From Limnoperna fortunei (lineage: Eukaryota; Mollusca; Bivalvia; Mytilida; Modiolidae), in contig OX104113.1 of the NCBI GenBank assembly GCA_944474755.1, positions 60,842,074 through 60,906,073 of the forward strand: DNA of 64,000 bases, given 5' to 3'. The translations under genes and the position numbers were made by a program. Below, in pieces: positions 568 to 46,976 of this stretch. The notes beneath the pieces were generated by a model. The model saw nothing but the letters and a program-made list of their open reading frames with translations. It did not search any database and was not told the DNA's origin. The number at the start of each line of letters is the position of its first letter. The first letter of the stretch is position 1.

Positions 568-597
568 ATCAACCTAATGTGAGCCGACCATTACAGG
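568..597 (+). CDS. Microexon A1 (30 nt)
   Basis: Pyrimidine-rich tract ending TTTTAG precedes it and GTAATA follows as donor, slightly weaker than the GTAAG of the other copies. Read in phase 1, with G carried over from the preceding exon, it encodes DQPNVSRPLQ with an NVS sequon. The other two frames contain a stop. Confidence 0.65.
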
Positions 598-1405
598 GTA
601 ATAAATCTCGTATGTTGTCATATTTAATAGCGAATGTAAAATAATGATCACATACATACTAATTGAAAAAAAACAACTAAAATCCAGCTTTTCTTTAGAT
701 ATTTCTATGCTTTCATAGCCACAAACTGGGTTTAAACCGTGAATATCTTAATTAATACAATTTTTGGAGACCTAAAATATAAGAATGAAACTAATTTAGA
801 TTTGTCTGCTTACTATATAAATCTCATAAAATGTAAACACTTTAAGTGATCAAAAGATATAATATTCATACAATATTGATCTTATTTTCTTCGCTGCAAA
901 CGACATTTGAAAGCAATTTTTTTGAGATCACCATGTGGACATAGATGTACGCACTCATCATTTATGGTATAATTTCAAATTGCAATACTTTTATCTGCTG
1001 TGAATCTTTCCTTGGCTACGTTTGCACTGATGAAGTAAAAACATTAATCATTTAAAGCCATCCTATAAAGATGCCTGTTCATTAAGCATCACACAACATC
1101 AATTTTAGGTATGCAAAAGTGCACAAACTCTTTCTCTCTTTCTTTCTGTCTCGCTCTCTCTCTCACGTTCGTAGTACAAATATAATTATATGCAAACTTA
1201 ATCTCTCAATCTTTTGATATAAGTAAAATATTAATCGATGAAAGTTTAATATCGACAACAATTGATTTAAAATTCGTTTAAATAGATACATCATCTAATA
1301 GAAGTCTTTTGTTCAGCAAAGTAATTTATTATGGAATATATAGGAATACTGATACAGTATGAATTTTAAAGACATGTCATTTAACTTAAATTGTTCTTCT
1401 TGTAG

Positions 1406-1435
1406 ATACAATTAACAGGAGCCCTCTATTAAAAG
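1406..1435 (+). CDS. Microexon B1 (30 nt)
   Basis: Acceptor TTCTTCTTGTAG, donor GTAAGCAG. The phase-1 frame encodes DTINRSPLLK, with an NRS sequon; the usual second proline of the B type is leucine here. The other two frames are closed by TAA. Confidence 0.65.
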
Positions 1436-2293
1436 GTAAGCAGACTCATATGACGTTATAATATCCAGTATAAAAAGTTAAATAATGATCAATCATCTGC
1501 TAATTGGAGAAAGAAAATAGGTGTCACAAATAATTAAAAATCAGCTTTCCAAGAGATATTTCTCTTCTTTCATTATTGTAGATTGGTTTGAATTTTTTTG
1601 AATATCACTATTAGAATTGAACTAATTTAGTTATGTCTGCATATTTTATACATCTATTAAAAAGCCAACATTTTAAGTAAGCTTTAGATTTAATATTCAT
1701 TTGATAATAATCTGCAAACGATATTTGCAGTAATCTTTTTCGCGATTGAGGTGTGGTGTGGACATTGATTTACGTGGAAAACATATGTAGTATAATTTCA
1801 AATTGCTATATTTTTATCTGCTGTGAATTTTTCCTTGGCGACGCTTGAATTGATACAGTAAATACCATTAATTCTTCAAATGTATCTTATAACAGAGTGT
1901 GCACATTTAACATAAAACAACTAACATCAATCGCCCTAGGAAACGAAATTAGAAAATTAATATTGGAGGTATGCAAATGTCGCCCGACTCTATCTATCTA
2001 TCTCTTACGGTTAAGATTGGCACTGGTGTGCCACGTCGGTAAGACAATTATAATTCTGCGCAAATGCAATCACCGTACATTGCTAAAATACTGCTCTCTG
2101 AAAGTTATTATCGACAACAATGTGCGTAAATTTCTTATTATTTATAGAACATGTATAACAAAGCTTTTGTTTAGTTAGAACATGTACAACGAATCTTTTG
2201 TTAAGTAAAACATTAATTAAGGCGTATATATGAATACTGATATGTTGTACATTTTAAATACATTTCATTTAATTGAAATTGTTCTGGTTTTAG

Positions 2294-2323
2294 ATCAACC
2301 TAATGTGAGCCGACCATTACAGG
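2294..2323 (+). CDS. Microexon A2 (30 nt)
   Basis: Acceptor TTCTGGTTTTAG, donor GTAAGAAG. Encodes DQPNVSRPLQ in phase 1, identical in peptide to the 568-597 copy, 1726 bp away. Confidence 0.7.
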
Positions 2324-3121
2324 GTAAGAAGTCTCGTATGTTGTCATATCTATTAGTGAATGCAAAATAATGATCACATGCATACTAATTGAAAAAAAAC
2401 AACTAAAATCCAGCTTTTCTTTAAATATTTCTATGCTTTCATAGCTACAAACTGGGTTTAAACCTTGAATATCTTTATTAATACAATTTTTGGAGACATA
2501 AAATATAAGAATGAAACTAATTTAGATTTGTCTGCTTACTATATAAATCTCAAAATGTAAACCTTAAGTGATCAAAAGATATAATATTCATAGAATATTA
2601 ATCTTATTTTCTTCGCTGCAAACGACATTTGAAAGTAATTTTTTGAGATCACCATGTGGACATTGATGTACGCGCTCATCATTTATGGTATAATTTCAAA
2701 TTGCTATACTTTTATCTGCTGTGAATCTTTTCTTGTCTACGTTTGCACTGATAAAGTAAAAACATTAATCCTTCAAAGCCATCCTTTAAAGGTGCCTGTT
2801 CATTAAGCATCACACAACATCAATTTTAGGTATGCTAAAACTCTTTCTTTCTTTCTTTCTGCCTCGCTCTCTCTCTCTCTCACGTTGGTAGTACAAATAT
2901 AATTATATGCAAACTTAATATCTCAATCTTTTGATATAAGTAAAATATTAATCGGTGAAAGTTTAATATCGACAACAATTTATTTAAAATTCTTTTAAAT
3001 AGATACATCATCTATTAGAAGTCTTTTGTTCAGCAAAATAATTTTTTAAGGAATATATAGGAATACTGATACAGTATGAATTTATATACATGTCATTTAA
3101 CTGAAATTATTCTTCTTGTAG

Positions 3122-3151
3122 ATACAATTAACAGGAGCCCTCCATTAAAAG
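3122..3151 (+). CDS. Microexon B2 (30 nt)
   Basis: Acceptor TTCTTCTTGTAG, donor GTATGA rather than GTAAG but still a plausible GT donor. Encodes DTINRSPPLK in phase 1. Confidence 0.65.
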
Positions 3152-3999
3152 GTATGAGACTCATATGATGTTATAACATCCAATATAAAATGTTAAATAA
3201 TGATCAATCATATGCTAATTTGCGAAAGAAAATAGGTGTGACAAATAATTTAAAATCAGCTTTCCAAGAGATATTTCTCTTCTTTCATTATTGTAGATTT
3301 GTTTGAATTCTTTTGAATATCACTATTAGAGTTGAACTAATTTAGTTATGTCTGCATACTTTATACATCTATTAAAAAGCCAACATTTTAAGTAAGCTTT
3401 AGATTTAATATTCATTTGATAATAATCTGCAAACGATATTTGCAGTAATCTTTTTCGCGATTGAGGTGTGGACATTGATTTACGTGGAAAACAAATGTAG
3501 TATAATTTCAAATTGCTATACTTTTGTCTGCTGTGAATTTTTCCTTGGCGACGCTTGAATTGATACAGTAAATACCATTAATTCTTCAAATGTTTCTTAA
3601 AAAAGAGTGTGCACATTTAACATAAAACAAGTAACATCAATCGCCCTAGGAAGCGAAATTAGAAAATTAATATTGGAGATATGCAAATGTCGCCCGACTC
3701 TATCTATCTCTTACGCTTAAGATTGGCACTGGAGTGCCACGTCGGTGAGACAATTATACTTCTGCTCAAACGCAATCTCCGTACATTGCTAAAATACTGC
3801 TCTCTGAAAGTTATTATCGACAACAATATGCGTAAATTTCTTATTATTTATAGAACATGTATAACAAAGCTTTTGTTTAGTTAGAACATGTACAACGAAT
3901 CTTTTGTGTAGTAAAACATTAATTAAGGCATATATATGAATACTGATATGTTGTACATTTTAAATACATTTCATTTAATTGAAATTGTTCTGGTTTTAG

Positions 4000-4029
4000 A
4001 TCAACCTAATGTGAGCCGACCATTACAGG
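4000..4029 (+). CDS. Microexon A3 (30 nt)
   Basis: Acceptor TTCTGGTTTTAG, donor GTAAGAAG. Encodes DQPNVSRPLQ in phase 1. Lies in the recently duplicated 1718-bp unit. Confidence 0.7.
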
Positions 4030-4838
4030 GTAAGAAGTCTCGTATGTTGTCATTTCTAAAAGCGAATGTAAAATAATGATCACATACATTCTAATTGAAA
4101 AAAAACAACTAATATCCGGCTTTTCTTTAGATATTTCTATGCTTTCATAGCTACAAACTGGGTTTAAACCTTGACTATCTTTATTAATACAATTTTTTGG
4201 AGACCTAAAATACAAGAATGAAACTAATTTAGATTTGTCTGCTTACTATATAAATCTCATAAAATGTAAACACTTTAAGTGATCAAAAGATATAATATTC
4301 ATATAATATTGATCTTATTTTCTTCGCTGCAAACGACATTTGAAAGTAATTTTTTTGAGATCACCATGTGGACATTGATGTACAAGCTCATCATTTATAG
4401 TATAATTTCAAATTGCTATACTTTTATCTGCTGTGAATCTTTCCTTGGCTACGTTTGCACTGATAAAGTAAAAACATTAATCCTTCAAAGCCATCCTATA
4501 AAGGTGCCTGTTCATTAAGCTTCACACAACATCAATTTAAGGTATGCAACAGTGCACAAACTCTTTCTCTCTTTCTTTCTCTCTCGCTCTCTCTCTCTTT
4601 CACGTTGGTAGTACAAATATAATTATATGCAAACTTAATCTCTCAATCTTTTGATATAAGCAGAATATTAATCGATGAAAGTTTAATATCAACAACAATT
4701 TATTTAAAATTCGTTTAAATACATCATCTATTAGAAGTCTTTTGTTCAGCAAAATTATTTATTATGGAATATATAGGAATACTGATACAGTATGAATTTT
4801 AAATACATGTCATTTAACTGAAATTGTTCCTCTTGTAG

Positions 4839-4868
4839 ATACAATTAACAGGAACCCTCCATTAAAAG
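4839..4868 (+). CDS. Microexon B3 (30 nt), sequon lost
   Basis: Acceptor TTCCTCTTGTAG, donor GTAAGCAG. Encodes DTINRNPPLK: serine of the NRS sequon is replaced by asparagine. Confidence 0.7.
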
Positions 4869-5717
4869 GTAAGCAGACTCATATGATGTTATAATATTCA
4901 ACATAAAATGTTAAATAATGATCAATCATATGCGAATTGGAGAAAGAAAATAGGTGTTACAAATAATTTAAAATCAGCTTTCCAAGAGATATTTCTCTTC
5001 TTTCATTATTGTAGATTGGTTTGAATTCTTTTGAATATCACTATTAGAATTGAACTAATTTAGTTATGTCTGCATATTTTATACATCTATTAAAAAGCCA
5101 ACATTTTAAGTAAGCTTTAGATTTAATATTCATTTGATAATAATCTGCAAACGATATTTGCAGTAATCTTTTTCGCGATTGAGGTGTGGACATTGATTTA
5201 CGTGGAAAACAAATGTAGTATAATTTCAAATTGCTATACTTTTGTCTGCTGTGAATTTTTCCTTGGCGACGCTTGAATTGATACAGTAAATACCATTAAT
5301 TCTTCAAATGTATCTTAAAAAAGAGTGTGCACATTTAACATAAAACAAGTAACATCAATCGCCCTAGGAAGCGAAATTAGAAAATTAATATTGGAGATAT
5401 GCAAATGTCGCCCGACTCTATCTATCTCTTACGCTTAAGATTGGCACTGGAGTGCCACGTCGGTGAGACAATTATACTTCTGCTCAAACGCAATCTCCGT
5501 ACATTGCTAAAATACTGCTCTCTGAAAGTTATTATCGACAACAATATGCGTAAATTTCTTATTATTTATAGAACATGTATAACAAAGCTTTTGTTTAGTT
5601 AGAACATGTACAACGAATCTTTTGTGTAGTAAAACATTAATTAAGGCGTATATATGAATACTGATATGTTGTACATTTTAAATACATTTCATTTAATTGA
5701 AATTGTTCTGGTTTTAG

Positions 5718-5747
5718 ATCAACCTAATGTGAGCCGACCATTACAGG
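5718..5747 (+). CDS. Microexon A4 (30 nt)
   Basis: Exact counterpart of A3, 1718 bp downstream, with the same acceptor and donor. Encodes DQPNVSRPLQ. Confidence 0.7.
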
Positions 5748-6556
5748 GTAAGAAGTCTCGTATGTTGTCATTTCTAAAAGCGAATGTAAAATAATGATCA
5801 CATACATTCTAATTGAAAAAAAACAACTAATATCCGGCTTTTCTTTAGATATTTCTATGCTTTCATAGCTACAAACTGGGTTTAAACCTTGACTATCTTT
5901 ATTAATACAATTTTTTGGAGACCTAAAATACAAGAATGAAACTAATTTAGATTTGTCTGCTTACTATATAAATCTCATAAAATGTAAACACTTTAAGTGA
6001 TCAAAAGATATAATATTCATATAATATTGATCTTATTTTCTTCGCTGCAAACGACATTTGAAAGTAATTTTTTTGAGATCACCATGTGGACATTGATGTA
6101 CAAGCTCATCATTTATAGTATAATTTCAAATTGCTATACTTTTATCTGCTGTGAATCTTTCCTTGGCTACGTTTGCACTGATAAAGTAAAAACATTAATC
6201 CTTCAAAGCCATCCTATAAAGGTGCCTGTTCATTAAGCTTCACACAACATCAATTTAAGGTATGCAACAGTGCACAAACTCTTTCTCTCTTTCTTTCTCT
6301 CTCGCTCTCTCTCTCTTTCACGTTGGTAGTACAAATATAATTATATGCAAACTTAATCTCTCAATCTTTTGATATAAGCAGAATATTAATCGATGAAAGT
6401 TTAATATCAACAACAATTTATTTAAAATTCGTTTAAATACATCATCTATTAGAAGTCTTTTGTTCAGCAAAATTATTTATTATGGAATATATAGGAATAC
6501 TGATACAGTATGAATTTTAAATACATGTCATTTAACTGAAATTGTTCCTCTTGTAG

Positions 6557-6586
6557 ATACAATTAACAGGAACCCTCCATTAAAAG
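6557..6586 (+). CDS. Microexon B4 (30 nt), sequon lost
   Basis: Exact counterpart of B3, 1718 bp downstream. Encodes DTINRNPPLK, so the Ser to Asn change predates the duplication. Confidence 0.7.
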
Positions 6587-7439
6587 GTAAGCAGACTCAT
6601 ATGATGTTATAATATTCAACATAAAATGTTAAATAATGATCAATCATATGCGAATTGGAGAAAGAAAATAGGTGTTACAAATAATTTAAAATCAGCTTTC
6701 CAAGAGATATTTCTCTTCTTTCATTATTGTAGATTGGTTTGAATTCTTTTGAATATCACTATTAGAATTGAACTAATTTAGTTATGTCTGCATATTTTAT
6801 ACATCTATCAAAAAGCCAATATTTTAAGTAAGCTTTAGATTTAATATTCATTTGATATTAATCTGCAAACGATATTTGCAGTTATCTTTTTCGCGATTGA
6901 GGTGTGGACATTGATTTACCTGGAAAACATATGTAGTATAATTTCAAATTGCTATACTTTTATCTGCTGTGAATTTTTCCTTGGCGACGCTTGAATTGAT
7001 ACAGTAAATACCATTAATTCTTCAAATGTATCTTATAAAAGAGTGTGCACATTTAACATAAAACAACTAACACCAATCGCCCTAGGAAGAGAAATTAGAA
7101 AATTAATATTGGAGGTATGCAAATGTCGCCCTACTCTATCTATCTATCTCTTACGGTTAAGATTGGCACTAGAGTGCCACGTCGGTGAGACAATTATACT
7201 TCTGCGCAAACGGAATCTCCGTACATTGCTAAAATACTGCTCTCTGAAAGTTATTATCGACAGCAATATGCGTAAATTTCTTATTATTTATAGAACATGT
7301 ATAACAAAGCTTTTGTTTAGTTAGAACATGTTTAACGAATCTTTTGTTTAGTAAAACATTAATTAAGGCGTATATATGAATACTGATATGTTGCACATTT
7401 TAAATACATTTCATTTAATTGAAATTGTTCTTGTTTTAG

Positions 7440-7469
7440 ATCAACCTAATGTGAGCCGACCATTACAGG
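7440..7469 (+). CDS. Microexon A5 (30 nt)
   Basis: Acceptor TTCTTGTTTTAG, donor GTAAGAAG. Encodes DQPNVSRPLQ in phase 1. Confidence 0.7.
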
Positions 7470-8277
7470 GTAAGAAGTCTCGTATGTTGTCATATCCAAT
7501 AGCGAATGTAAAATAATGATCACATACATACTAATTGAAAAAAAAACTAAAATCCAGCTTTTCTTTAGATATTTCTATGCTTTCATAGTTACAAACCTGG
7601 TTTGTACCTTGAATATCTTTATTAATACGATTTTTGGAGACCTAAAATATAAGAATGAAACTAATTTAGATTTGTCTGCTTACTATATAAATCTCATAAA
7701 ATGTAAACACTTTAAGTGATCTAAAGATATAATATTCATATAATATTGATCTTATTTTCTTCGCTGCAAACGACATTTGAAAGTAATTTTTTTGAGATCA
7801 CCATGTGAACATTGATGTACGCGCTCATCATTTATAGTATAATTTCAAATTGCTATACTTTTATCTGCTGTGAATCTTTCCTTGGCTACGTTTGCACTGA
7901 TAAAGTAAAAACATTAATCCTTCAAAAGCCATCCTATAAAGGTGCCTGTTCATTAAGCATCACACAACATCAATTTTAGGTATGCAACAGTGCACAAACT
8001 CTTTCTCTCTTTCTTTCTGTCTCGCTCTCTCTTTCACGTTGGTAGTACAAATATAATTATATGCAAAAATAATCTCTCAATCTTTTGATATAAGTAAAAT
8101 ATTAATCGATGAAAGTTAAATATCGACAACAATTTATTTAAAATTCTTTTAAATAGATACATCATATATTAGAAGTTTTTTGTTCAGCGAAATAATTTTA
8201 TTATGGAATATATAATAATACTGATACAGTATGAATTTTTTTAAATACCTGTGATTTAACTGAAATTATTCTTGTGG

Positions 8278-8307
8278 AAACAATTAACAGGAGCACTCTA
8301 TTAAAAT
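8278..8307 (+). pseudogene. Broken B-type microexon
   Basis: Homologous to the other B microexons and still 30 nt, but the acceptor AG has become GG (CTTGTGG) and the last exon base before the GTAAG donor is T instead of G. Without an acceptor it is unlikely to be spliced in. It is the last microexon before the retrotransposon insertion at 9007. Confidence 0.6.
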
Positions 8308-9006
8308 GTAAGCAGATTCATATGATGTTATAATATCCAATATAAAATGTTAAATAATGATCAATCATCTGCTAATCGGAGAAAGAAAATAGGTGTCACA
8401 AATAATTAAAAATCAGCTTTCCAAGAGATATTTCTCTTCTTTCATTATTGTAGATTGGTTTGAATTTTTTTAAATATCACTATTAGAATTGAACTAATTT
8501 AGTTATGTCTGCATATTTTATACATCTATTAAAAAGCCAACATTTTAAGTAAGCTTTAGATTTAATATTCATTTGATAATAATCTGCAAACGATATTTGC
8601 AGTAAACTTTTTCTCGATTGAGGTGTGGACATTGATTTACGTGGAAAACATATGTAGTATAATTTCAAATTGCTATACTTTTATCTGCTGTGAATTTTTC
8701 CTTGGCGACGCTTGAATTGATACAGTAAATACCATTGATTCTTCAAATGTATCTTATAAAAAGTGTGCACATTTAACATAAAACAACTAACATCAATCGC
8801 CCTAGGAAGCGAAATTAGAAAATTAATATTGGAGGTATGCATATGTGGCCCGACCTTATCTATTTATCTCTTACGGTTAAGATTGGCACTGGTGTGCCAC
8901 GTCGGAGACAATTATACTTCTGCGCAAACGCAATCTCCTTACATTGCTAAAATACTGCTGTCTGAAAGTTATTATCGACAACAATATGCGTAAATTTCTT
9001 ATTATT

Positions 9007-14735: not shown

Positions 14736-14911
14736 TTTTTCCTAAAGAGAAACGTGGCGTTCCGTGGTCAAAAGCACGAAAAGACCGTGGCAATCAAGTG
14801 CACCGTTTTTATACCTAAGTGCCGCTTAGGTAATTGAAGAGTTACAAGACTGATAACTCGTCGAATAATTATAATAAACGAATTTAATTTCGATTATTAA
14901 ATTGCATTATT
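14736..14911 (-). repeat. Split direct repeat A1 (5' terminus of the Ngaro-like element)
   Basis: About 176 bp matching 9622-9799 with few differences, ending GCATTATT at the array junction. The 14400-14735 interval between it and ORF1 is AT-rich leader sequence in which nothing else was recognised. Confidence 0.85.
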
Positions 14912-15062
14912 TATAGAACATGTATAACAAAGCTTTTGTTTAGTTAGAACATGTATAACGAATCTTTTGTTTAGTAAAACATTAATTAAGGCGTATATAT
15001 GAATACTGATATGTTGTACATTTTATATATATTTCATTTAAGTGAAATTGTTCTTTTTTTAG

Positions 15063-15092
15063 ATCAACCTAATGTGAGCCAACCATTACAGG
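15063..15092 (+). CDS. Microexon A6 (30 nt)
   Basis: Acceptor is a long T-run ending TTTAG, donor GTAAGCAG. Encodes DQPNVSQPLQ in phase 1. First microexon after the retrotransposon. Confidence 0.7.
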
Positions 15093-15900
15093 GTAAGCAG
15101 TCTAGTCTGTTGTCATATCTAATAGCGAATGCAAAAAAATGATCACATAAATACTAATTGAAAAAAAACCAACTAAAATCCAGCTTTTCTTTAGACATTT
15201 CTATGCTTTCATAGCTACAAACTGGGTTTAAACCTTGAATATCTTTATTACTACAATTTTTGGAGATCTAAAATATAAGAATGAAACTAATTTAGATTTG
15301 TCTGCTTACTATATAAATTTCATAAAATGTAAACACTTTAAGTGATCAAAAGATATAATATTCATATAATATTAATCTTATTTCCTTCTCTGGCAACGAC
15401 ATTTGAAAATAATTTTTTGAGATCACCACGTGGACATTGATGTACGCGCTCATTATTTCTGGTATAATTTCAAATTGCTATACTTTTATCTGCTGTGAAT
15501 CTTTCCTTGGCTACGTTTGCACTGATAAAGTAAAAACATTAATCATTCAAAGCCATCCTATAAAGGTGCCTGTTCATTACGCATCACACAACATCAATTT
15601 TCGGTATGCAACAGTGCAGAAACTCTTTCTCTCTTTCTTCCTCTCTCGCTATCTCTCTCACCTTGGTAGTACAAATATAATTATATGCATACTTAGTCTC
15701 TCAATCTTTTGATATAAGAAAAATATTAATCGATGAAAGTTTAATATTGACAAGAATTTATTTAAAGTTCTTTTAAATAGATACATCATCTATTAGAAGT
15801 CTTTTGTTCAGCAAAATAATGTATAATGGAATATATAGGAATACTGATACAGTATGAATTTTAAATACATTTTATTTAACTGAAATTCTTCTTCCTGTAG

Positions 15901-20521: not shown

Positions 20522-22470
20522 TAAAAAACAAGTAAAATCCAGCTTTACTTTTGATATTTCTATGCTTCATAACTACAACTGGTATCAAATTTTTATATCT
20601 TTATTTATACAATTTTGGAGCCTTAAAATATCTGCTTACTATATAAATCTCATTAACTGTTAACACTTTAAGTGAGCAAATGACGTAATATTCATATGGT
20701 ATTAATTTTATTTCCTTCGCTGCAAACGACATTTCGAAAAAAATGTTAAATACAACTAATTTATTTATATCTGCATATTTTATACATCTCTTAAAAAGTG
20801 AGCACTTTAAGTAAGCTTTAGATTTAAAATTCATTTGATGTTAATCTGCAAACGATATTTTCAGTAATCTTTTTCGCGATTGAGGTGTGGACATTGATTT
20901 ACGTGGAAAACATATGTAATATAATTTCAAATTGCTATACTTTTATCTGCTGTGAACTTTTCCTTGGCGACGCTTGAATTGATACAGTAAATACCATTAA
21001 TTCTTCAAATGTATCTTATAAAAGAGTGTGCACATTTAACCTAAAATAACTAACATCAATCGCCCTAGGAAGCGAAATTAGAAAATTAATATTGGAGGTA
21101 TGCAAATGTTGCCCGACTCTATCTATCTATCTCTTACGGTTAAGATTGGCACTGGTGTGCCACGTCGGTGAGACAATTATACTTCTGCGCAAACGCAATC
21201 TCCTTATATAGCTAAAATACTGTTCTCTGAATGGTATTACCGACCAAAATATTGTACCGTTTCCGGCACGTCGCGACTGGAGTCTCGGTGTAGTTGAGCT
21301 AGTAGAATATTCTAATATTATTATAAGACAGACGACTGACGCTAGCGATAATAGCATAAGCCCGACTTATATACATGGGCAACCATTTTACGCTACTGAT
21401 TTAGACAAACAAAAGTTAATATTGTTTAATAGTTAACATAGTCAATTATTCAGCAGTTAAAGACAATTTTCAAAAGTTTTAAGGATGTTCGCTGCTTATA
21501 CTCATTATAAATAGGATGCTTTATTTCAAGCATTTTTGGATGTAGTATACATATATATTTAAAAATACCGTTATGCAAAAAAATTCATAGGTTCGTGTGC
21601 TCGTTTTTACGGTAGGGGTAGATTTCTTACATGTGTAATCATCTATGATCACAAAATCTGGACATGGGCATCATATCATAAAAGCAATAAAAAATCTTTA
21701 TCAGCTGGTAGATTATTATAATCTCATTAATAACAATTAGATAATATATATAGTTCGCATTTTCAAAAAGAAAAATATAATATTGTACATCTCAACTTCA
21801 GTTAAATACAGTACTGAAAAAAGTACGGGAAAATGTATCACCCATAGTTTTTTTCTTCAACCCTTTCTTATAAATACAATATAAAGTCCCAAAATTTTAA
21901 CAAAAATATTTATATTACCTTTATGTTTGTATACATGAAGAACAAAATGTAGGTTCGTGTTCCAAATTTTTTGAAAGGTCGAAAAAACTGTTATTTTATT
22001 GAAAAAATACGGGAAAAATGATCCATTTTTTATATTTTTCCCATTATTTCAAGTTTTGCCCTTAAAATATCTGTCAATGTATTTATTTAAGTAAACTAGC
22101 TAATATATTTCATATAACATGTGTTTGCTAAAACTAGGTGCTTTCTATAGCCTGATAAGCATGCACAGCATTTCAAGTGCTGAAGTGTCAAAAAGGATAA
22201 ATACATGTACCTAACAAAAAAGACATTTCAGGTACAAGAATTTTTACATCAATGTTTAGATTCTAATACAATTTTACAAGAAGGTAGAGCTGTTTTTGCC
22301 TAGCAATTGCACATGCTTTATTGATAATCAATCTAATACAATTTTCTAAATATTTAGCAGAGCGCAATACGACAGCAATATGTTGAACCATGTATGTTGG
22401 GGGGGGACAAAGTGGATACAAAATTTATATTGGAATACACTTACAAATAGTGCACTTTCCCTAGCAATAA

Positions 22471-24749: not shown

Positions 24750-26567
24750 CTCGTGTTTATTCCGGAAAATGGCGGGTATTTACCGTAAATGTCGTATTTT
24801 CTTTGAAAATCAAGTTATTTGTTTAAAAATCCGATTTCTTTTATATACTATTATTTAATTCATAACAAATCTTTTGTATTTTGTGGATTTCTTTAGTCTA
24901 TATAAATTTTTGTGAAGTTTTACTGATAACAACATCAATAAATTGATGACAAAATACGACCAGCGAATATCCTTAAGATAACATTTATTTTAATCAACAA
25001 TTCAGCAAGCAATCTGGTTTCCGGCAATCTGGTCAAGTGTCCCAAATAAACCACCTAAAATATTATATTAGAATTACAAAATATTTTTGTTTTTCTTTAA
25101 GCGTAAAAGGAACTCGGCAAATCTATTTCTCTGTGTACCAATTTGTAATATGATTCTCTTATATGAGCCTCAATATATGATAAGGAATGCAACGTCGAGT
25201 GAGTCTCTGTAATAACCTCTATTTGTTTTTATTTATTAATGTTGACGCTATGAGCCTTTCGAAATTGTACACTTTCAATATAGTGAGTATTTTTGTGTGA
25301 GTCGTTTTATATATATTTTCTAATTAAATCGTGTCATTTTATGAAACAAGAGTTAATTGTATATTAACCTTGCAATTGGGTGAGTTCCCTTATTGTATCA
25401 CCGTGAAAAGACACTATTTGTAGCGTTTAACGACTTTGTTAAGATTCAGTTTTCGATCGAACTTAATTCATCGAGAGTCGAATCACGACTGAAGACTATT
25501 GAAAATTCGGGTCTTTTTATACTATTGAGGGACTCGCTATGTTTTACGAAAAGGAATACTGATTTACGGCAGTGACTCTTTATAAACAATATAGCGTTTA
25601 CGTCACCTTTTGTGTTTGTAAAACCATCAAAATATTGATGCGTCTATCAATCAGTTCATCATACAAATGGAAAATCTGTACTAGACGTACTTGCATCAAA
25701 TAAATTCTTAGTTTATAATCTATTTGGAGTAACTAGTGCAAGGAATATTTCGAAATCGCAAAATAAACTCTATGACGGCAATATGAAATAATGACGTTTT
25801 TATGTCCAGAAGATTTAAATAAGGTAATCCTTGTAGTCAAACTATCATAATTTCTGTGAAATTTCTTGACAAAACAAAATACAGCCAAAAAGTATCATAT
25901 CTCTATGGATTTTCGTAACTTTTGATAATTTCGATCATGGCGGAAAAATTATTATTCCCGAACATTACTAACGTTCTAAATGTTTAAATAAATGTTAGTA
26001 ATGTTAAAAGTGAAAGTAGATTTATGACGTCAACAATCAGATCTATTAATAGAATTCGTTTCCAAAAATAGTACAGTACAATTTAACAAAACGGAATAAT
26101 TCAGTCAGGAGGGAGAAGCTTATCCAAGGATTCAGACAGCATTTCAAAATCCGTTACAATATGCATAAATTTCTTATTATTTATAGAACATGTATAACAA
26201 ATCTTTTGTTTAGTAAAAACATTAATAAAGGCGTGTATATTAATACTTGTCACAACTTTGGTTTTTATTACAACTTTTGGGAACTAGCACTGACTAAATA
26301 AAACACGTCTGCTCAAAAAGACATTTTATCCAAACGCCAAAACGAGACTAGTACATTGCACATAAATGATAAGACACATTTCCGGACATCACCGTATACG
26401 AAACCCGGAATAATAATGTGGTTAATGAGAAAGGTGACAAGAGACAATCATACGAAATACAAATGATAGATATATGAAATAACTGAATTACACATCAATA
26501 TCATAATATACTGATATGTTGTACATTTTGAATACATTTCATTTAATTGAAATTGTTCTTGTTTTAG

Positions 26568-26597
26568 ATCAGCCTAATGTGAGCCCACCATTAAAGG
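26568..26597 (+). CDS. Microexon A10 (30 nt), PPLK variant
   Basis: Acceptor TTCTTGTTTTAG, donor GTAAGAAG. Encodes DQPNVSPPLK, intermediate between the A and B types and closest to the SPLK of the last exon. It is the last microexon with both splice sites intact before 34336. Confidence 0.65.
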
Positions 26598-27053
26598 GTA
26601 AGAAGTCTCGTATGTTGTCATATCTAATAGCGAATGTAAAATAATGTTCACATAAATACTAATTGAAAAAAACCAACTAAAATCCAGCCTTTCTTTGGAT
26701 ATTTCTATGCTTTCATAGCTACAAACTGGTTTTAAACCTTTATCAATACAATTTTTGGAGACCTAAAATATAACAATCAAACTAATTTAGATTTGTCTGC
26801 GTACTATATAAATCTCATAAAATGTAAACACTTTAAGTGATCAAAAGATATAATATTAATCTTATTTCCTTCGCTGCAAACGACATTTGGAAGTATTTTT
26901 TTAGATCACCATGTGGACATTGATGTACGCGCACATCATTTCTGGTATAATTTCAAATTGCTATACTTTTATCTGCTGTGAATCTTTGCTTGGCAACGTT
27001 TGCACTAATAAAGTAAAAATACTAATCCTTCAAAGCCATCCTATAGAGGTGCC

Positions 27054-27118
27054 CCGTCCTAAATATAGCTGAAATAAGTAAAGCAAACATCCAATCAATC
27101 AATCAATATACAGGTGCC
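27054..27118 (+). mobile_element. Short 3' tail of a SINE-like repeat with 7-bp target duplication
   Basis: About 58 bp ending in (AATC)n-like sequence, inserted between two copies of AGGTGCC (27047-27053 and 27112-27118). The uninterrupted array has one AGGTGCC followed by TGTTCATTAAG. The tail words AATATAGCTGAAAT and AAGCAAACATCCAATCAATC match the dispersed repeat R2 at 33691-34035. Confidence 0.85.
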
Positions 27119-27352
27119 TGTTCATTAAGCATAAAAAACATCAATATTAGGTATGCAACAGTGCACAAACTTTTTCTCTCTCGCTCTCTCTCACGTTGGT
27201 AGTACAATTATAATTATATGCAAACTTAATCTCTCAATCTTTTGATATAACTAAAATATTAATCGATGAAAGTTTAATATCGACAACATTTTATTTAAAA
27301 TTCTTTTAAATATATACATCATCTATTAGACGTCTTTTGTTCAGCAAAATAT

Positions 27353-28862
27353 AAACCATAAAAGATAGAAGCAGACAATAAAGGGAAAAATACTCCTCTT
27401 ATCGAAAATTTCATTTGGTACATTGTCCCAAACCAGTGCGATGAACCGTTTTCGAGTTACAGCCCTTGATACGTTTCGGCTAATCGGTTTTGGTTAAAAC
27501 TTGAAAACGGTTAGAGATAATATAGTAAACATATAGGTTTAACGTGATAGGTAAGAAAAGAGCTTCAACGTCATACCATAGCAACAAGGTAACTGTTATA
27601 AAAAGTCCTTAGCAACCATATATTTTTAGAATCATGTACTTTAGTGACATATGTCATTTTTTGACCGGAAGTGGCATTTTTTCCCTAGTAATGGTTATAA
27701 AAGTTCTTAACAACAATATATTTTTTGGCTCGGGAACCACATTCTTTACTCAAATAACTCATTTTTATGACAATAAGTGACATTTGGTGCATAGCAACAG
27801 ACACAAAAGTGTATGGCATCATATTTTCTGACGTTAGAGGGACAGTGGGAAAGACCTTCTTATTTGTTCTCAGAACAAATGGCAGTTTAATTATTTTTGT
27901 TTTCTTCTTCCGCGGAGGTTTGCCAAAAAAACGTCTCCATATATCATTTCGATACTTGGTACCATTAATCGGTCATATCCGGAGATGACATGGCTCATGC
28001 TTTTAGGCAGATCTATTTTTAGTAACAGAGTTATCTACCCGAACACGAAAACCCTTGTTAGCAGATAAACTCAGAAAACATAACCGATTCTCAAAATCTG
28101 AAGTGTACAAAATGTAGGCTGCCCTATGGCGATGATTTAACATGCTAATTTTTTTCTTCCAATCAACTTCCTGTTTAGGCGTTTTTGACCCGAAAAGTGT
28201 CGCAACTCGTAAAAACTTTTTTCTCGAAAACCGTAAGTGATAGAGACTTGGGATCACCACCATTAATCCTAAGTGACATATATTACATTTTAAAATGTCA
28301 AGTTCAAAGGTCACCATTGGTCTTGTTATCACTATATCTCATAAACCATAAAAGATAGAAGCAGACAATAAATGGAAAAAATACTCCTCTTATCGAGACC
28401 TTCATTTGGTACATGGCTCGAAGCTGTGCAATAAACCGTTTTCGAGTTACAGCCCTTGACGCCTTTCGGTTAATCGGTATTTGATTACAACATGAAAACG
28501 GTTAAAGATAATATTAGTAAACATATAGGTTTAAAGTGATCAGTAGGAAAAGAGCTTCAATTTGAGCCAAAGGTCAAAGGTCATAGGTCAAGCTCATACC
28601 ATAGTAACAAGGTAACTGACATTACTGAAATATGTCATTTCATGACCGGAAGTGGCATTTTGTCCCAAGCAACGGGAATAAACGTCCTTAACAACCATAC
28701 ATTGTTTAGCTCGGGACCACTTTCTTTACACAAATAACTCATTTTTATGAAGAGGAATCTTTGCTTAGCAAGACAAAAAATACAATAGCATCAGATATAT
28801 TTTCTGACTTTAGAGCAACATTGAGAAAGACCTCATTTGTCCTCAGAACAAATGGCGATTTA
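27353..28862. repeat. Dispersed repeat cluster (R1 copies 2 and 3 plus a second repeated segment)
   Basis: Two segments, 27353-27600 and 28338-28600, are clear copies of each other (ACCATAAAAGATAGAAGCAG, CGTTTTCGAGTTACAGCCCT). Each is followed by an R1 copy (27600-27895 and 28610-28862) related to 17556-17830. The structure suggests one composite element present twice. A minus-strand open frame at 28003-28332 lies between them and has no recognisable domain; I do not call it a gene. Confidence 0.65.
28571..28590 (+). promoter_or_regulatory. Triple AGGTCA direct repeat with 1-bp spacing
   Basis: AGGTCA at 28571-28576, 28578-28583 and 28585-28590, each separated by one base. This is two overlapping DR1 sites of the kind bound by RXR/HNF4/COUP-type nuclear receptors. 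It is inside a dispersed repeat, and the sister copy near 27570 lacks it, so function is only a possibility. Confidence 0.35.
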
Positions 28863-28884
28863 ATTGAAATTGTTCTTGTTTAAG

Positions 28885-28914
28885 ATCAAGCTAACGTGAC
28901 CCTTCCAGTAAAGG
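28885..28914 (+). pseudogene. A-type microexon with lost donor
   Basis: Acceptor TTGTTTAAG is still usable and the 30 nt encode DQANVTLPVK in phase 1, keeping a sequon (NVT). The donor has changed from GTAAG to GAAAG, so normal splicing out of this exon is not expected. Confidence 0.55.
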
Positions 28915-30570
28915 GAAAGCAGCCTCGGATTTTGATAACTACAAATTGTTTTCAATTCTTAAATATAATTATTATTACAATTTTTGCAGACCTAAAATAT
29001 AAGAGCTGAACTAATTAATATTTGTCTGCTTAACATATACATCTTTAAGTATACAAAAGACGTAATATTCACATGCTATTTATCTTATTTGCTTAGCTAC
29101 ATGCGATATGTGGCCGGAATCTTTTTCGGGATCGCCGTGTGGACATTGATTTACGTGCATATCACTGGTAGTATTAGTTTATTGTTCTACTTATATCTGC
29201 TGCGAATGTTCCCTTGGAGATGATACAGTAACTATTATAAATCCTGCAAAGCACTTTAGTAAAAGCGCTGGTACATTTAACATCAAGCAACAGACATAAT
29301 CAGCTAAATTAGACCATTCATATTGCAGGTATGCAAAAGTGCTAATAATCATATCTAACAGAGAATGTAAATTACATGTAATGACCAATACATGCTACTT
29401 AGTGAAAGAAGATGGCGGCGTCACACAAACCCGGTTTTTCAAGAGTTATTTCTCTTCTGTCATTACTGCAAATTAGTTTGATTTTTTTTAAATATCATTA
29501 TTATAATTTGCAGCCCTGAAATATTACAATCAAAATAATTAAATGATTTATCTACTTACTATATGCATGTCTTATAAATTCAGCTTTTAAGGTATGAGAC
29601 GTAATATTCATATTCGTATTTGCATAGCTGCAAATGACATTTTGCAGTATTTTCTTTTAATATCACGGTGTACATTCATTACGTGCATATCTATTCGGAT
29701 TTAAATGAAGGCAATAACAAAATACCGTACACCGTGGAAACTGTCTAAAAAGACAATCCAAAGACCGGCAAACTTTTAAACCAACTCCAAATTAGGTAAG
29801 TTAAAATTTCTATATTTTTATATTTCCTGTCAATATTTTACTTGTCGACGCTTGAATTGATAGGTAACTGCCATAAATTCTTCAAAGAAATCTTTTAAGA
29901 GCATCTGTACATTTAAAATCGAACAACTAACATCAATCGTGCGAGGAATCTTAAATATATCATCCGAAATGCAGATATGCAATTGTGCCCAAACTCTCCC
30001 TCTTTTCACTTTATCTCACTGTCTCTTTTTTCTCCTTTCTCGTTACCAATTATTAACAACTTGTGTATGAAGCAGAATATATCAATCTATGTCCTATCTG
30101 AGTCTTTTTTAATACATACTTTTATATGCAAACTCAATCTCTTTCTACGGGCAAAATATCGTTTGCTAAGTCGAAGATTATGTCCGCCCCTTCTTGTACT
30201 GGATACCGAAACCTTCACAAAAATCCATGCAAACAACGTTTTATAGGAGGATCGTCCAAGTGTACCACCAAAACACTATCACAACTCCTGACAACTCTTT
30301 TAACAATAAAAACGGGACTTCAAAAAATAAAAGTGACACTTTTCACTCCAGGATTGGCATAAATGAAATGTGAATTTGATTTTTTGACACTCTACATGGC
30401 CATTCTTAATATGCAGCTTAAAACCAGGCTTAAAGATCGAATTTAACGATGCTTTTTCAAGAAAAACGGAAAGAGATAATATAAATACCTAGTAATTAGC
30501 CATGAGAGATCTGTCAAATGTTTCATTTTCTGATTGACAACATATTTGTCATGTTTGGAGGACATGTTTG

Positions 30571-31260
30571 TTAACAAACTGTTGTATTCCATTGGGTACT
30601 AATTGTGCTCCTCTCCTCGCCGACGTGTTTTTGTACTCCAATGAGGCATAATTCCTAGAAAGCCTTCTGAAGAAGAAAGAAAAGACACTGGTCCATACCT
30701 TTAATTTCACCTTCCGCTATATTGATGATGTCCACAATGCTAAATTTGGTGACTATTCACATTCAATTTTCCGTAGCGAGCTTGAAGTTAAAGACACCAC
30801 CAATACACTAAGGTCAGCCTCCTACTTAGACCTACTTCGAGAAATAGGAAATATACTTGGGGGGTGGGGGACTACAAACTAGACTATACGACAAACGTGA
30901 TGACTTTCCAATAGTCACCTTACCGTTCATTGACAGCAACATTGCAGCAGCTCCAACGTATGGTGTGTACATTTCACAACTTATACGTTATTCTAGATCC
31001 TGCGATTGGTATTCCGATTTTCTTTATCTATAACTGCTGTTGACAACAAAACTACTCTAACAAGGGTTTGTTGTACCTAGGTTGATGTTATCTCTCTAGA
31101 AGTTCTATCGTCGTCACCATGACTTAATTGATCGTTATGGGAAATCAAACTCTCAAATACTACTATAGTATCAGACATTTTCTTTTAGTGATAGGCAGTG
31201 TTTCCTATTCCTGGATTTGATTTTTTCCTAGACATGACAATGAGTAGTAACTCGACGGTT
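30571..31260 (+). pseudogene. Penelope-like reverse transcriptase fragment
   Basis: Translated pieces resemble the C-terminal half of Penelope-like RTs: GTNCAPLLADVFLYS near 30597, FRYIDDV with the catalytic DD pair near 30712-30735, then SASYLDL, LYDKRDDF and a YGVYISQLIRYSR segment near 30958-31000. Frameshifts and stops are frequent, so it is dead. It replaces array sequence between about 30165 and 31470. A T-run followed by a long G-run lies downstream at about 31347-31378. Confidence 0.7.
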
Positions 31261-31614
31261 GTCTCATTAGATGCAGGTACTGCTTAAATGTCTGCAGAAC
31301 TGATATTTTGATTGGATTCGGGTAAATATCTTTCTGCTTTTGCGTTTTTTTTTTTGGGGGGGGGGGGGGGTGGGGGGGTTGCGTTACGCTGTATATGTTT
31401 GTCTGTATCCGGATTTGTAATTGTCCCTTGACTTTCGGCTCTTATTGATCAGTCGGTTTTTGTTTATATCAACAATTTAAATTCTTATTATCTATATAAC
31501 ATGTAAACAAGATAAAAATCTTTTGTTTAGTAAAAAAATAATAATTATGGGCTGTGTAGGACTACTGATACATTTCAAATACATTGACGATAATTTAATT
31601 GATTGTGTTGCAAG

Positions 31615-31645
31615 TCGAGCAATAACATGAGCCATCCAATAATGG
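31615..31645 (+). pseudogene. Decayed A-type microexon (31 nt)
   Basis: Between CAAG and GTAAAAAG there are 31 nt, recognisable by ACATGAGCCATCCAATAATGG. The extra base and a TAA in the phase-1 frame would break the reading frame if it were included. Confidence 0.45.
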
Positions 31646-31939
31646 GTAAAAAGCATCAAATATTATCATATCTAATACAAAATGTGAAATATTGAACATT
31701 TATATAGTAATTGGAGACAGAAATAGCTGGTGTCCTAAACAAGTAAAATTAGCTTTTTTCGTGAGACATTTTTCGTCTTTTATTACTGCAGATTGGTTGA
31801 ATACTTTATTATAATTAACATAACAATTTTTTGCTCGCTAATATATTTAAATTTAACTAAGTTAGAGTGTTCTTCTGACTATTTACATATCTCAAAAGTC
31901 AACAAAATGAGATTGCGCTAACAGAACACGTAATCAAGC

Positions 31940-32290
31940 ATGATTTCTCAGCTGTGGAACATGTTCTAGCAGACTGGCTCTACCTATGACCACCAGAGAA
32001 GTTGGCCACCTCGCATAGTCACTCCAGGTCAAGATCTGGGCCTTTCCTTTACGGAATCAAACCGTTTCAGTCACTGAAGTCGGAATGCCTGGAATGAGAA
32101 AAAACAGATCACAAACAGTCCCCAACCAACAATATGGCACTGGACCAAACGGCGTATTTTGGAGCAGATTTAATAACGTTAATAGAGTCCGATGGCGCAG
32201 AAGATTGAACGGCTGGACATTCCGTAACTTCACAGAATCTAGTTCAGCAAGGGTCCAGTGTTCTGCTATAAAAACGTGATGGTATAATCC
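31940..32290 (+). pseudogene. Possible Tc1/mariner-like transposase remnant
   Basis: An open frame at 32085-32279 contains a basic, tryptophan-rich segment RVRWRRRLNGWTFRNF that resembles the region before the second catalytic Asp of Tc1-type transposases. No catalytic residues or TIRs were identified. Low confidence. Confidence 0.25.
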
Positions 32291-32457
32291 ATGTATTCTG
32301 GCGCAGAAATGAACGCTTTTCTTCTTCTGTGTAGAAAGTAAATAACTTAAATAAAGTTAATAAACGATAATACTAGCGTCACGACGTGGGCGGCGATCCT
32401 TAAAGACCGTAAATCAGAACTTACATATACTGGTTTTTGCAAACGTCACATTTCTTC

Positions 32458-32900
32458 GGGATAAACTTATAAATCAAGGTTTCAAGAAAAAACGACTCGT
32501 CCGCGCCTTTAATCAGTTTTACTATAGATACAACTTCCTTATCGAAAAATATTCTATCTCGTTAGAAAATATGGCTGCAGATAGTTTTCCCAAATTTGAA
32601 TTCCGTGTACAGTAAACGTGCTACGATGATTGTTTGATACACCTATAAGTGACAAGTGGTATATGATACCCATCTATTTTAATCAACTAACCAACTCACA
32701 TTCTACAGTAATGAGAGCGGGAGGATTGGAATGCCATAAAACCTGGTTTAACCCACCATTTCTTTTGAAATGACTGTACCAAGTCAGGACCATTGCTTTA
32801 TGTTTGTTGTTGGTTCTGGAATTTGCCGGTTTCTCGGACTTTGATTTGATGATTTCTTTTTTTGACAGTTTCATCGGTGTTTTGGTATTTTGTTATTACC
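32458..32900. repeat. Dispersed repeat R3, copy 1
   Basis: Matches 45061-45370 plus 45628-45790 over its length (AAGAAAAAACGACTCGTC, GATACACCTATA, GACTGTACCAAGTCAGGACC). On the minus strand the matching reading KKEVVSIVKLIKDADESFF-like in the second copy suggests that it derives from a retroelement, possibly of Penelope type. Confidence 0.65.
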
Positions 32901-33690
32901 TTTATTTACATGTCATATGCAATTTAACGGCTCAAAGGTATAGAGACAAAATTATCTACCCTCAACCATGATTGACCGACAATGGTAGTTGCTACAACAT
33001 GGCAATGTGATATCTCAAACAGCGCGCTAAACAATTGACTATTTTAAGCAGAAAAGAATTCTTCAAAGGATCTTATAACATGCAACTACTAAAAGTTACA
33101 GTTATTATTAGGATTTATATAGCTCTAAGATATTGTATAAAAATAATTTAGGCTGTTCTACATTCTAGAAACATATTGGATAAAATCCACATACACAGTT
33201 TAGGTATGCAAATGACGACCACAAGTATGCAAAACATAATACATATTAAAGAGATTTGCATCGAACGAATATCTCCAATTCTCCAACTATACTTTAAATA
33301 CCAACAAAAAATCAATTGCAGTATATGATGAGATTGTGTACATAGACACCCTCAACGTAATGGTCATATTGTTTTATTAAAATTTCTTGAAAAGTAGTTA
33401 TCAACGACATTCGCAGTAATAATTTTGCGATCGCCGCTTGTATATTGATTTACGTGCATATGATTTCAGGTATAAATGCTATGGTTTTATCTGTTGCGAG
33501 TTTTTAGCATGGCGACGCTTGTATTGAGTAAAGACCAGACAGTGTACAAACATTTCTGGCATTGCTACATAACAATTCCTTGTACCACCAATCGAACACA
33601 TTTATCATAGTGATATATAAATTCAAAAATATTTGCTGTTACCCTACTGTAAGGGTTCACTGTGCTCGACCCACAGAGCTAACCAGCGCG

Positions 33691-34035
33691 TCCTCGAGTG
33701 GCGGATAAGGCATCCCCTCTGGTTTTGGGTTGTCATGTCAAAATAAGGAAAGCCTGACCGCGGACCAGTGGTAACGTGTTTTGAAATGCCACACTCCTTC
33801 AACGATAAAGACCACTTTTGTAGATTTATATAACAGTAAACTCGTTCGTTGTAGCCGCTACAAAAGGCTAAATTTTCCGCCCCTATCCATACCCCATGCT
33901 TTTCCAGTGGCAGTCAACATTTTTTACCTAGGGTCCATCATTTTCAATATATGTTTTGTGTGTTAACTTGTTCCCGTCCTGAATATAGCTGAAATACTGC
34001 TCGCTGGAAGTAAAGCAAACTTCCAATTAATCGAA
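33691..34035 (+). mobile_element. SINE-like dispersed repeat R2, copy 1
   Basis: Head with a box A-like CTCGAGTGGCGGATAAGGC at about 33693. The body has GATAAAGACCAC, GTAGCCGCTACAAAAGGCTA and CCAGTGGCAGTCA. The tail is CCTGAATATAGCTGAAATAC then TGCTCGCTGG and TTCCAATTAATC. Further copies at 37247-37520 (minus), 43290-43535 (plus) and 45371-45627 (minus). It sits about 300 bp before the last exon. Confidence 0.65.
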
Positions 34036-34335
34036 GTGAAATATTTACATTGAGCAATTTTCAGCTAAACCGAGACGTCGGGTTTCGTTGGGATTACGAG
34101 CCAAAGCACCTGGTGGGAATTCTCGATCTTCGGCCGGGAAATTGGCAATTATTTTTTGCACGTTGGAGTCTAGCAAACCTTCCTACTAGTCAGTCGCGAA
34201 CACATCTTCAGTTATTAACAGTTTTTTAGACTTACAATTACCTAGACCAGACCATTCGGCCACCTACATGTAGGTCAATGATGTGGCTACGTTAGAGCAT
34301 TTAGCAATTGTGCATTTGATTTATTCTCGTTGTAG

Positions 34336-35021
34336 ATAACAGCTCTCCCCTGAAAAACCAGATGACTGATTTAGGATTAGACACTGCTTTAAAATTACTA
34401 AACGCTAATGCAGTTGTTGCTGGTGTAGCACTCGATAATAATAAAATAAACAAGAAAATTGATACGCCTATAGGTGGTGTATACGTTTCTGCAGGCAGTG
34501 ATGGATTTAGTGCTGGTACAAAAATTAAAGTTCCGATCGTTGGTGGTCTGGATGGGTCTATAGAAGTTGATCACGTTAACAAAAGTGTTAAGGCAGATGT
34601 TTCCTTAAATGTTAATGGGGTTGGAGAGATTGGGGGTCATGTAAATATGGACAAGGAAGGAAATGTAAGCGGAGGTGGTAAAGTTGGAATTTCTGTTGGT
34701 CCTATAGCACAAGTCGGAATGCACGTTGATGTTGATAAAGATCGTAATGTAAATGGGGGAGTCAATGCCAAAGCAAACTTTGGACCTGTTGGTGTTGGTG
34801 CCAAAGTTAATGTTGACCAAAACAAACAATTGTCAGGTGGTGTCAATGCTGAAGCTAATATTGGACCACTTGGAAGTGTAAGCGGCAGCATTGATGTTGA
34901 TAAGAATGGAAAGTTCAGTGGCAGTACAACTGTCGAGGGTAGTTTAGGTGACCATGTGAACGATAATGTTAATAAAAGTGGAAATGTAATGGGAGCTCCA
35001 ATTCTGAAGTCGAAGTTATAA
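34336..35021 (+). CDS. Last exon of the microexon gene: Gly/Val-rich repeat protein C-terminus
   Basis: The acceptor TTCTCGTTGTAG is like those of the microexons, and the exon opens with a degenerate decapeptide (phase-1 D, then NSSPLKNQ) before the methionine at 34362. The frame set by the microexons continues into this ORF with no stop. From that methionine there are 219 residues ending at TAA (35019-35021). Residues about 70-190 form four to five imperfect units of roughly 27 residues, each with a GP(I/V/L)xxV turn, a VxVDKxxxxSGG segment and alternating hydrophobic residues, suggesting a stacked beta structure. No transmembrane segment or cysteine is seen in this part. A signal peptide, if any, would be upstream of the window. 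The pattern loosely recalls glycine-rich antimicrobial or matrix proteins, but I do not recognise the family. Confidence 0.85.
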
Positions 35022-46970: not shown

Positions 46971-46976
46971 GACACA

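What the first reader, a model, noticed from the sequence alone, without database searches (positions are those of the whole stretch)
568..35021. A gene built from a tandem array of symmetric 30-nt microexons
Seen: at least 17 copies of an exactly 30-nt segment, each between a pyrimidine-rich AG acceptor and a GT donor, spaced by about 0.55-0.9 kb in directly repeated monomers. In both types two of three frames contain stops, and the one open frame (phase 1) is the same in all and is also the frame in which the last exon at 34336 opens. Inference: a single gene whose transcripts string together variable numbers of decapeptides (DQPNVSRPLQ or DTINRSPPLK types) before a Gly/Val-rich domain. Since every cassette is 1-1 symmetric, any skipping or copy-number change keeps the frame, so both alleles and splicing could vary protein length. 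I know of no described gene with this exact design, though PEVK-type and Dscam-type exon arrays are partial parallels.
Basis: partly seen in the sequence, partly recalled or inferred. Interest (0 to 1): 0.93.

Follow-up and report, generated by a model that had tools for sequence, protein, structure and literature searches.

The report
Gene with 63 repeated ten-residue microexons
A stretch of what is probably a mussel genome carries a long row of tiny, same-sized coding pieces that could be skipped or added without breaking the protein, so the protein could vary in length between cells and between animals; whether it is actually transcribed is not yet shown.

Summary
The window has 17 intact 30-nt AG..GT cassettes in phase 1-1 and 3 decayed ones. 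Fetched upstream DNA carries the array to window coordinate -61683: 71 copies, 63 intact, one strand, two decapeptide types in near-strict alternation.

The last exon (34336-35021) is a family exon. Two paralogous genes on another contig place its homologue behind three exons, the first with a signal-peptide-like start, and have only one or two 39-nt symmetric microexons. The array monomers also hold remnants of the family's asymmetric third exon: an acceptor AG survives in 3 of 58, against 63 of 71 intact symmetric cassettes.

Best reading: a schistosome-MEG-like micro-exon gene that arose independently in a bivalve (probably Limnoperna), grown from 1-2 to 63 cassettes. Gaps: no transcript evidence; no homologue of the family's first exons within about 96 kb upstream; in the paralogs microexons lie 3', not 5', of the beta-repeat exon. 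The design is not unknown (MEGs, aphid microexon genes); the scale, uniform size and two-type alternation are unusual.

The parts
568..597 (+). 30-nt type A cassette, DQPNVSRPLQ
1406..1435 (+). 30-nt type B cassette, DTINRSPLLK
2294..2323 (+). type A cassette, DQPNVSRPLQ
3122..3151 (+). type B cassette, DTINRSPPLK (donor GTATGA)
4000..4029 (+). type A cassette, DQPNVSRPLQ
4839..4868 (+). type B cassette, DTINRNPPLK
5718..5747 (+). type A cassette, DQPNVSRPLQ
6557..6586 (+). type B cassette, DTINRNPPLK
7440..7469 (+). type A cassette, DQPNVSRPLQ
8278..8307 (+). decayed type B cassette, acceptor AG lost
15063..15092 (+). type A cassette, DQPNVSQPLQ
15901..15930 (+). type B cassette, DTISRSPPLK
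16745..16774 (+). type A cassette, DQPNVSPPVK
17395..17424 (+). type B cassette, DTINRSPPLK
18305..18334 (+). type A cassette, DQPNVSPPVK
18856..18885 (+). type B cassette, DTINRSPPLK
19683..19712 (+). type A cassette, DQPNVSPPVK
26568..26597 (+). type A cassette, DQPNVSPPLK
28885..28914 (+). decayed type A cassette, donor GT lost (GA)
31615..31645 (+). decayed cassette: AG and GT 31 nt apart, stop in frame
33472..33546 (+). remnant of the family's third exon (e3), with a stop, inside the last array-monomer fragment, 0.8 kb upstream of the last exon
34336..35021 (+). last exon: phase-1 start (G|AT), 227 codons after the split Asp, Cys-free, Gly/Val-rich beta-repeat domain, stop at 35019-35021
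35363..35368 (+). AATAAA polyadenylation-signal-like hexamer after the last exon
1..9006 (+). tandem array of 1.7-kb A+B dimer monomers (continues upstream of the window)
14898..21250 (+). second block of array monomers
26156..33537 (+). third, decayed block of array-monomer fragments

Best explanation
A micro-exon gene of schistosome-MEG type that arose independently in a bivalve. Shown by sequence: two related genes in this genome with a signal-peptide-like first exon, two further small exons with Cys, one large beta-repeat exon entered in phase 1, and one or two 39-nt 1-1 microexons; and, on contig C3, a 36-nt and 63 intact 30-nt 1-1 microexons in repeat units that also carry remnants of exon e3. 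Inferred: a segment holding e3 and a microexon was duplicated in tandem. The asymmetric e3 copies (85 nt) would break the frame and lost their acceptors, whereas the symmetric 30-nt copies could be added or skipped freely and were kept. The transcript would join a variable number of decapeptide cassettes to the beta-repeat domain, giving an extracellular protein with a proline-rich, sequon-bearing stalk. Its length would vary by splicing (30 nt is near the size where inclusion becomes inefficient, recalled) and by unequal crossing-over between near-identical monomers.
For: 63 of 71 copies keep AG, GT and the phase-1 frame, against an AG at the acceptor in 3 of 58 e3-like stretches of the same 224 kb. 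Within types exon plus acceptor is the least diverged part: four diverged A copies exon 0.10 vs median 0.29 (7.0% of windows as low), four diverged B copies 0.033 vs 0.26 (3.4%). Chance scan: 14 vs mean 0.3. Last exon: 227 open codons, paralogues at 56 and 47% identity; dN/dS about 0.48 (C3 vs a), 0.60 (C3 vs b), 0.36 (a vs b), from the NG86 values; its acceptor and phase agree with the paralogs'. Array remnants reach 33537, 0.8 kb before the last exon. The cassette profile hits the paralogs' microexons: gene a E = 4e-6, second copy of gene b E = 0.07, first copy of gene b not hit.
Against: No RNA evidence. No homologue of e1 or e2 in the 160 kb upstream of the window and only weak signal-exon candidates from -120 to -61.6 kb. 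In the paralogs the microexons lie 3' of the beta exon. Between types A and B the exon is as diverged as introns (0.375 vs median 0.41), mostly by replacements (1 silent, 10 replacement for 2294 vs 3122); pairs with an old 5'-edge copy differ at 3-12 of 30 exon positions against 5-13 of 51 in the adjacent intron, so the peptide is not clearly constrained. Uniformity of the core can come from homogenisation without selection. 26 of 58 e3 remnants still have one open frame. The e3 match rests on a 22-23-nt core. Similarity of the last exon's start (DNSSPLK) to the decapeptides is weak: rank 4 of 1193 acceptor-like sites.
Confidence: 0.58

Rival explanations
1. Satellite by-product: a unit with one once-functional microexon was amplified as a tandem repeat after the 5' half of the gene was lost; the cassettes are intact only because the array is young and homogenised, and the locus makes no protein.
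For: No 5' exon found; 8 of 71 copies broken, 5 of the 8 at the two edges of the array; core units about 90-97% identical to one reference unit.
Against: Exon plus acceptor is a local divergence minimum among diverged copies within each type; the diverged copies at -61683, -46228 and -39014 keep splice sites, length and frame; e3 in the same units lost its acceptor in 55 of 58; the last exon is open and conserved.
Confidence: 0.22
2. The array is the 3' microexon tail of a separate upstream gene, as in the paralogs where microexons follow the beta exon; the last exon at 34336 is a second, independent gene copy.
For: Order beta exon then microexon in genes a and b, with phase-1 GTAAG donors near the end of both beta ORFs.
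Against: No beta exon in the 160 kb upstream of the window at E 1; array monomers run to within 0.8 kb of the last exon on the same strand and the cassettes are in phase with it; the e3 copy just before it carries a stop.
Confidence: 0.15
3. Chance exon-like pattern in a repeat, with no relation to a gene.
For: Any tandem repeat multiplies whatever motif it holds.
Against: Related 39-nt and 36-nt 1-1 microexons with similar splice context in two paralogous genes and at the array's 5' edge; an in-phase family exon at the 3' end.
Confidence: 0.05

Closest known systems
Micro-exon genes (MEGs) of schistosomes and tapeworms
   Same: Runs of micro-exons mostly divisible by 3, so skipping keeps the frame; a long 3' flanking exon; secreted products; fast-evolving coding part; Thr/Ser/Pro-rich disordered stretches in several (PMC4350168, PMC4671649, PMC7653826; passages read).
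   Different: MEGs 'appear to be restricted to platyhelminths' (PMC4350168); their micro-exons vary in size (under 36 bp) and 26 of 33 in MEGs 26-32 are symmetric (PMC4671649). Here 63 cassettes share one size and one phase, in near-identical 1.7-kb dimers of two alternating types, in what is probably a mussel.
Aphid cassette effectors (KQY/KHI) and bicycle genes
   Same: Large genes, small secreted proteins, many tiny exons, in bicycle genes nearly all of one phase (PMC7495047 section 5 and passages; PMC9168663 passages).
   Different: Bicycle internal exons are phase 2, here phase 1; in KQY1a 33 of 37 exons are 15 bp or less, and the passages I read do not describe a homogeneous tandem array.
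Tropoelastin, titin PEVK (recalled, no call)
   Same: Many small symmetric exons, two alternating exon types in elastin, length variation by splicing.
   Different: No sequence relation tested; exons there vary in size and are old and diverged (recalled).
Mussel foot protein 1 decapeptide repeats (recalled, no call)
   Same: Ten-residue repeats with PP near the end, in mussels.
   Different: No Tyr in the decapeptides here; gene structures not compared (the paper search was empty).

Membership tests
Micro-exon gene (operational criteria of PMC7653826) | micro-exons under 70 nt and divisible by three | tested here: met
   63 of 71 copies intact at 30 nt, one 36-nt exon; predicted exons, not cDNA
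Micro-exon gene (operational criteria of PMC7653826) | at least 7 exons, micro-exons at least half, run of at least 4 | tested here: met
   64 predicted intact micro-exons before one large exon; predicted structure only
Micro-exon gene | signal peptide in a 5' long exon | tested here: inconclusive
   No first exon found on C3; paralogs a and b have a signal-peptide-like first exon
Micro-exon gene | transcripts differing by micro-exon skipping | not testable with these tools
   no RNA data
Micro-exon gene | sequence membership in a described MEG family | not tested
   no MEG sequences compared
Micro-exon gene | platyhelminth host (reported range, not part of the operational rule) | tested here: inconclusive
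   Points to a mollusc: of 120 listed of 1186 LINE relatives the two carrying an animal's name are molluscs; assembly 1.335 Gb, C3 112 Mb, against L. fortunei 1.34 Gb, 15 chromosomes, largest 115 Mb; contig numbers differ, 285 vs 309
Aphid bicycle genes | internal exons in phase 2 | tested here: not met
   the 63 intact cassettes are open in phase 1

The most novel reading that the evidence does not exclude
A bivalve gene that generates protein-length and glycan-number diversity combinatorially: about 63 interchangeable 30-nt cassettes of two alternating types, chosen by splicing per transcript and by array length per allele, made by a 'symmetry filter' in which tandem duplication copied a whole e3-microexon segment but only the frame-neutral exon stayed alive.
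Probability: 0.35. Interest if true: 0.86.

Novelty: new variant of a known kind. Interest (0 to 1): 0.7.

Why it matters
If transcribed, it would be a micro-exon gene far outside the flatworms and aphids, with an inferred path from one or two microexons (genes a, b) to 63, and with an internal control (dead asymmetric e3 next to live symmetric cassettes) that makes the idea 'only symmetric exons survive tandem duplication' directly testable. It would also be a locus where allele length and splicing could both tune a secreted protein. Such exons are hard for gene finding and read alignment (said of MEGs in PMC7653826).

Tried and rejected
Identity of the last exon's domain: no Pfam match at cut-off, no PDB chain by sequence, no hit at E 0.001 among 3202 candidates of the large protein set, none in viral contigs. 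Single-sequence AlphaFold model: mean pLDDT 57.6, antiparallel beta meander; Foldseek best E 0.045 to porins with TM 0.35, none at E 0.001: not used. The N-terminal part (e1 to the start of the beta exon) has no Pfam match at cut-off and no convincing PDB match. Gag-like ORF 50420-51394: no homologue at E 0.001.

N-glycosylation idea: 48 of 63 decapeptides carry N-X-S/T, but only 29 without a following Pro; kept as a hint. Positive selection on the cassettes: differences are mostly replacements but few and not independent; not claimed.

Signal-exon scans on C3 (-120 to -61.6 kb) gave weak candidates, none preferred. An e3-like stretch at -66907 looks decayed. The e3 remnant in the reference monomer: 0 of 200 shuffles reach the score of e3a or e3b, by a core of 22-23 nt; e1 and e2 show nothing (79, 39, 64 and 73 of 200 shuffles).

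Literature (open-licence library only; listings and starts of abstracts unless said otherwise): peptide strings absent; bivalve, mollusc and tandem microexon searches showed no such gene (11 of 11 listed, 20 of 382 listed); foot-protein gene search empty; other searches (15 of 15; 8 of 735; 8 of 605; 6 of 6). DeMarco 2010, the founding MEG paper, is not held.
Full report
What is in the window. Ten of type A and seven of type B, each 30 nt, have AG before and GT after and read in phase 1 (G|AT = Asp) as decapeptides such as DQPNVSRPLQ and DTINRSPPLK. Three more copies are decayed (8278, 28885, about 31615). A pattern scan that knows nothing of the exon sequence finds 14 candidates on the plus strand over seven lengths from 24 to 42, each an array exon of 30 nt; the minus strand gives three, of 24, 27 and 33 nt. 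For 30 nt alone the first-order Markov expectation is 0.3, maximum 3 in 200. The repeat unit is a 1.7-kb A+B dimer; non-array DNA lies between 9006 and 14898 and between 21250 and 26156.

Beyond the window. One search of the window's own assembly was answered: the window is G000:C3:60842074-60906073 in a 1.335-Gb assembly. I fetched 160 kb upstream. The array runs to window coordinate -61683, with a related 36-nt 1-1 exon at -64410. In these 224 kb the exon profile finds 71 copies at E 1, 63 of them intact: 17 in the window and 46 upstream; 8 are broken. The types alternate almost strictly; exceptions are where copies are missing or broken and at the 5' edge, where the first seven are B-like. 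The listed hits are on the plus strand.

The last exon belongs to a gene family. Its 227 codons match two loci on C10 (56 and 47% identity) and a decayed one on C15 with three stops. On C10 I could read two genes. Each has a first exon with a signal-peptide-like start (MYLSFLLVFLAFVVAATPAYLRTCVCVENN, MSVSFLVVLLALVVPATVGYLRTCVCVENN), exon e2 (83 nt), exon e3 (85 nt) and a large beta-repeat exon entered in phase 1 with an Asp codon, as at 34336. These exon borders are my reading of sequence and conservation, not cDNA. After the beta exon come 39-nt 1-1 microexons, one in gene a and two in gene b, and both beta ORFs have a phase-1 GTAAG donor near their end. The cassette profile hits the gene a microexon at E = 4e-6 and the second of gene b at 0.07, and misses the first of gene b. 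Another 8 kb downstream of each gene shows no more of them, and I did not find the genes' terminal exons. NG86 on the beta exon gives dN/dS near 0.48, 0.60 and 0.36 for C3-a, C3-b and a-b, so the C3 exon was coding for much of its history.

An internal control. The peptide search for e1-e3 hit the array unit itself. A DNA profile of e3 finds 58 e3-like stretches that begin at the exon start in the 224 kb (best E 1e-4); one of them, at -66907, lies outside the array. e3 against the reference unit scores above 200 of 200 shuffles by a 22-23-nt core, whereas e1 and e2 do not stand out. In these stretches an AG at the acceptor survives in 3 of 58; one of three frames is open in 26 of 58. The e3 exon is asymmetric, so each extra live copy would shift the frame. 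The neighbouring 30-nt exon is symmetric and intact in 63 of 71. The simplest reading is that a segment with e3 and a microexon was duplicated in tandem and only the frame-neutral exon stayed alive. This is inference from decay patterns; homogenisation means that the copies are not independent.

Constraint on the cassettes. Within types, exon plus acceptor is the least diverged part of the unit (four diverged A copies 0.10 vs median 0.29; four diverged B copies 0.033 vs 0.26; 7.0% and 3.4% of windows are as low or lower). Between types the exon is as diverged as introns (0.375 vs 0.41), mainly by replacements. Pairs with one of five old 5'-edge copies differ at 3-12 of 30 exon positions against 5-13 of 51 in the adjacent intron; these five keep length and frame, and three of them both splice sites. 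So length, phase and splice sites are kept better than the peptide.

How it most likely works (inferred). A primary transcript of about 100 kb or more is spliced so that a variable run of decapeptides precedes the beta-repeat domain. Thirty-nt exons sit near the size limit for efficient exon definition (recalled), so skipping is expected and harmless. The product would be secreted if, like its paralogs, it has a signal peptide; that exon was not found on C3. 48 of 63 decapeptides have an N-X-S/T sequon, 29 without a following proline. Length variation between alleles is expected from near-identical tandem units.

What speaks against. No transcript was seen. No homologue of e1 or e2 was found in the 160 kb upstream of the window, which reaches about 96 kb beyond the 36-nt exon, and the signal-exon scan covered only -120 to -61.6 kb. 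The paralogs have the microexons on the other side of the beta exon. A dead or silent locus, or a split between two genes, therefore remains possible (together about 0.37 in my estimate).

Host. Of the 120 listed (of 1186) relatives of the LINE protein at 46971, two carry an animal's name, Mizuhopecten yessoensis and Patella caerulea; the top ones are unnamed and one is filed under a Thiodiazotropha MAG. The scaffold number differs (309 against 285 contigs), so this is probable, not proven.

Comparison. By a published operational rule for micro-exon genes (exons under 70 nt and divisible by three, at least seven exons, at least half micro, a run of four; PMC7653826, passages) the predicted gene qualifies. 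MEGs were said to appear restricted to platyhelminths (PMC4350168, passages). Aphid bicycle genes are another large class; their internal exons are nearly all phase 2 (PMC9168663, passages). I call this a new variant of a known kind: it works like a MEG, and is not shown to be related to one.

Noticed in passing
window 48810-50389, - strand: Four type I hammerhead ribozymes at about 512-nt spacing in four 98-100% identical repeats, a metazoan retrozyme-like array; mussel retrozyme repeats are reported at about 350-390 bp (PMC7229834, passages).
   Followed up: partly
window 10444-13411, - strand: ORFs with a weak integrase N-terminal match (E 3e-4, just under the Pfam cut-off) and a weak RNase H-like match, probably a DIRS-type element between cassettes 8278 and 15063.
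   Followed up: partly
window 46971-47894, + strand: LINE reverse transcriptase ORF (Pfam RVT_1 E 2e-29); the two listed relatives with an animal's name are molluscs.
   Followed up: yes
C10 gene a locus (L014-L016), opposite strand: A further, more diverged copy of the beta-repeat sequence (about 32-40% identity) on the other strand, about 4-5 kb upstream of gene a's first exon.
   Followed up: no
L026 (window coordinates -112405 to -111815 on +, -118585 to -119229 on -): Two tandem-repeat stretches open for a Lys/Pro-rich repeat (NVNKKPPHVKIKPL-like), about 48-55 kb upstream of the array's first microexon.
   Followed up: no
window 63115-63492, - strand: ORF made of a tandem repeat (FAQTSRC...), no family match at cut-off.
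   Followed up: no
C10 gene b upstream (L017-L019): Satellite-like repeats spread over the roughly 23 kb before gene b, seen as many repeated weak profile hits.
   Followed up: no
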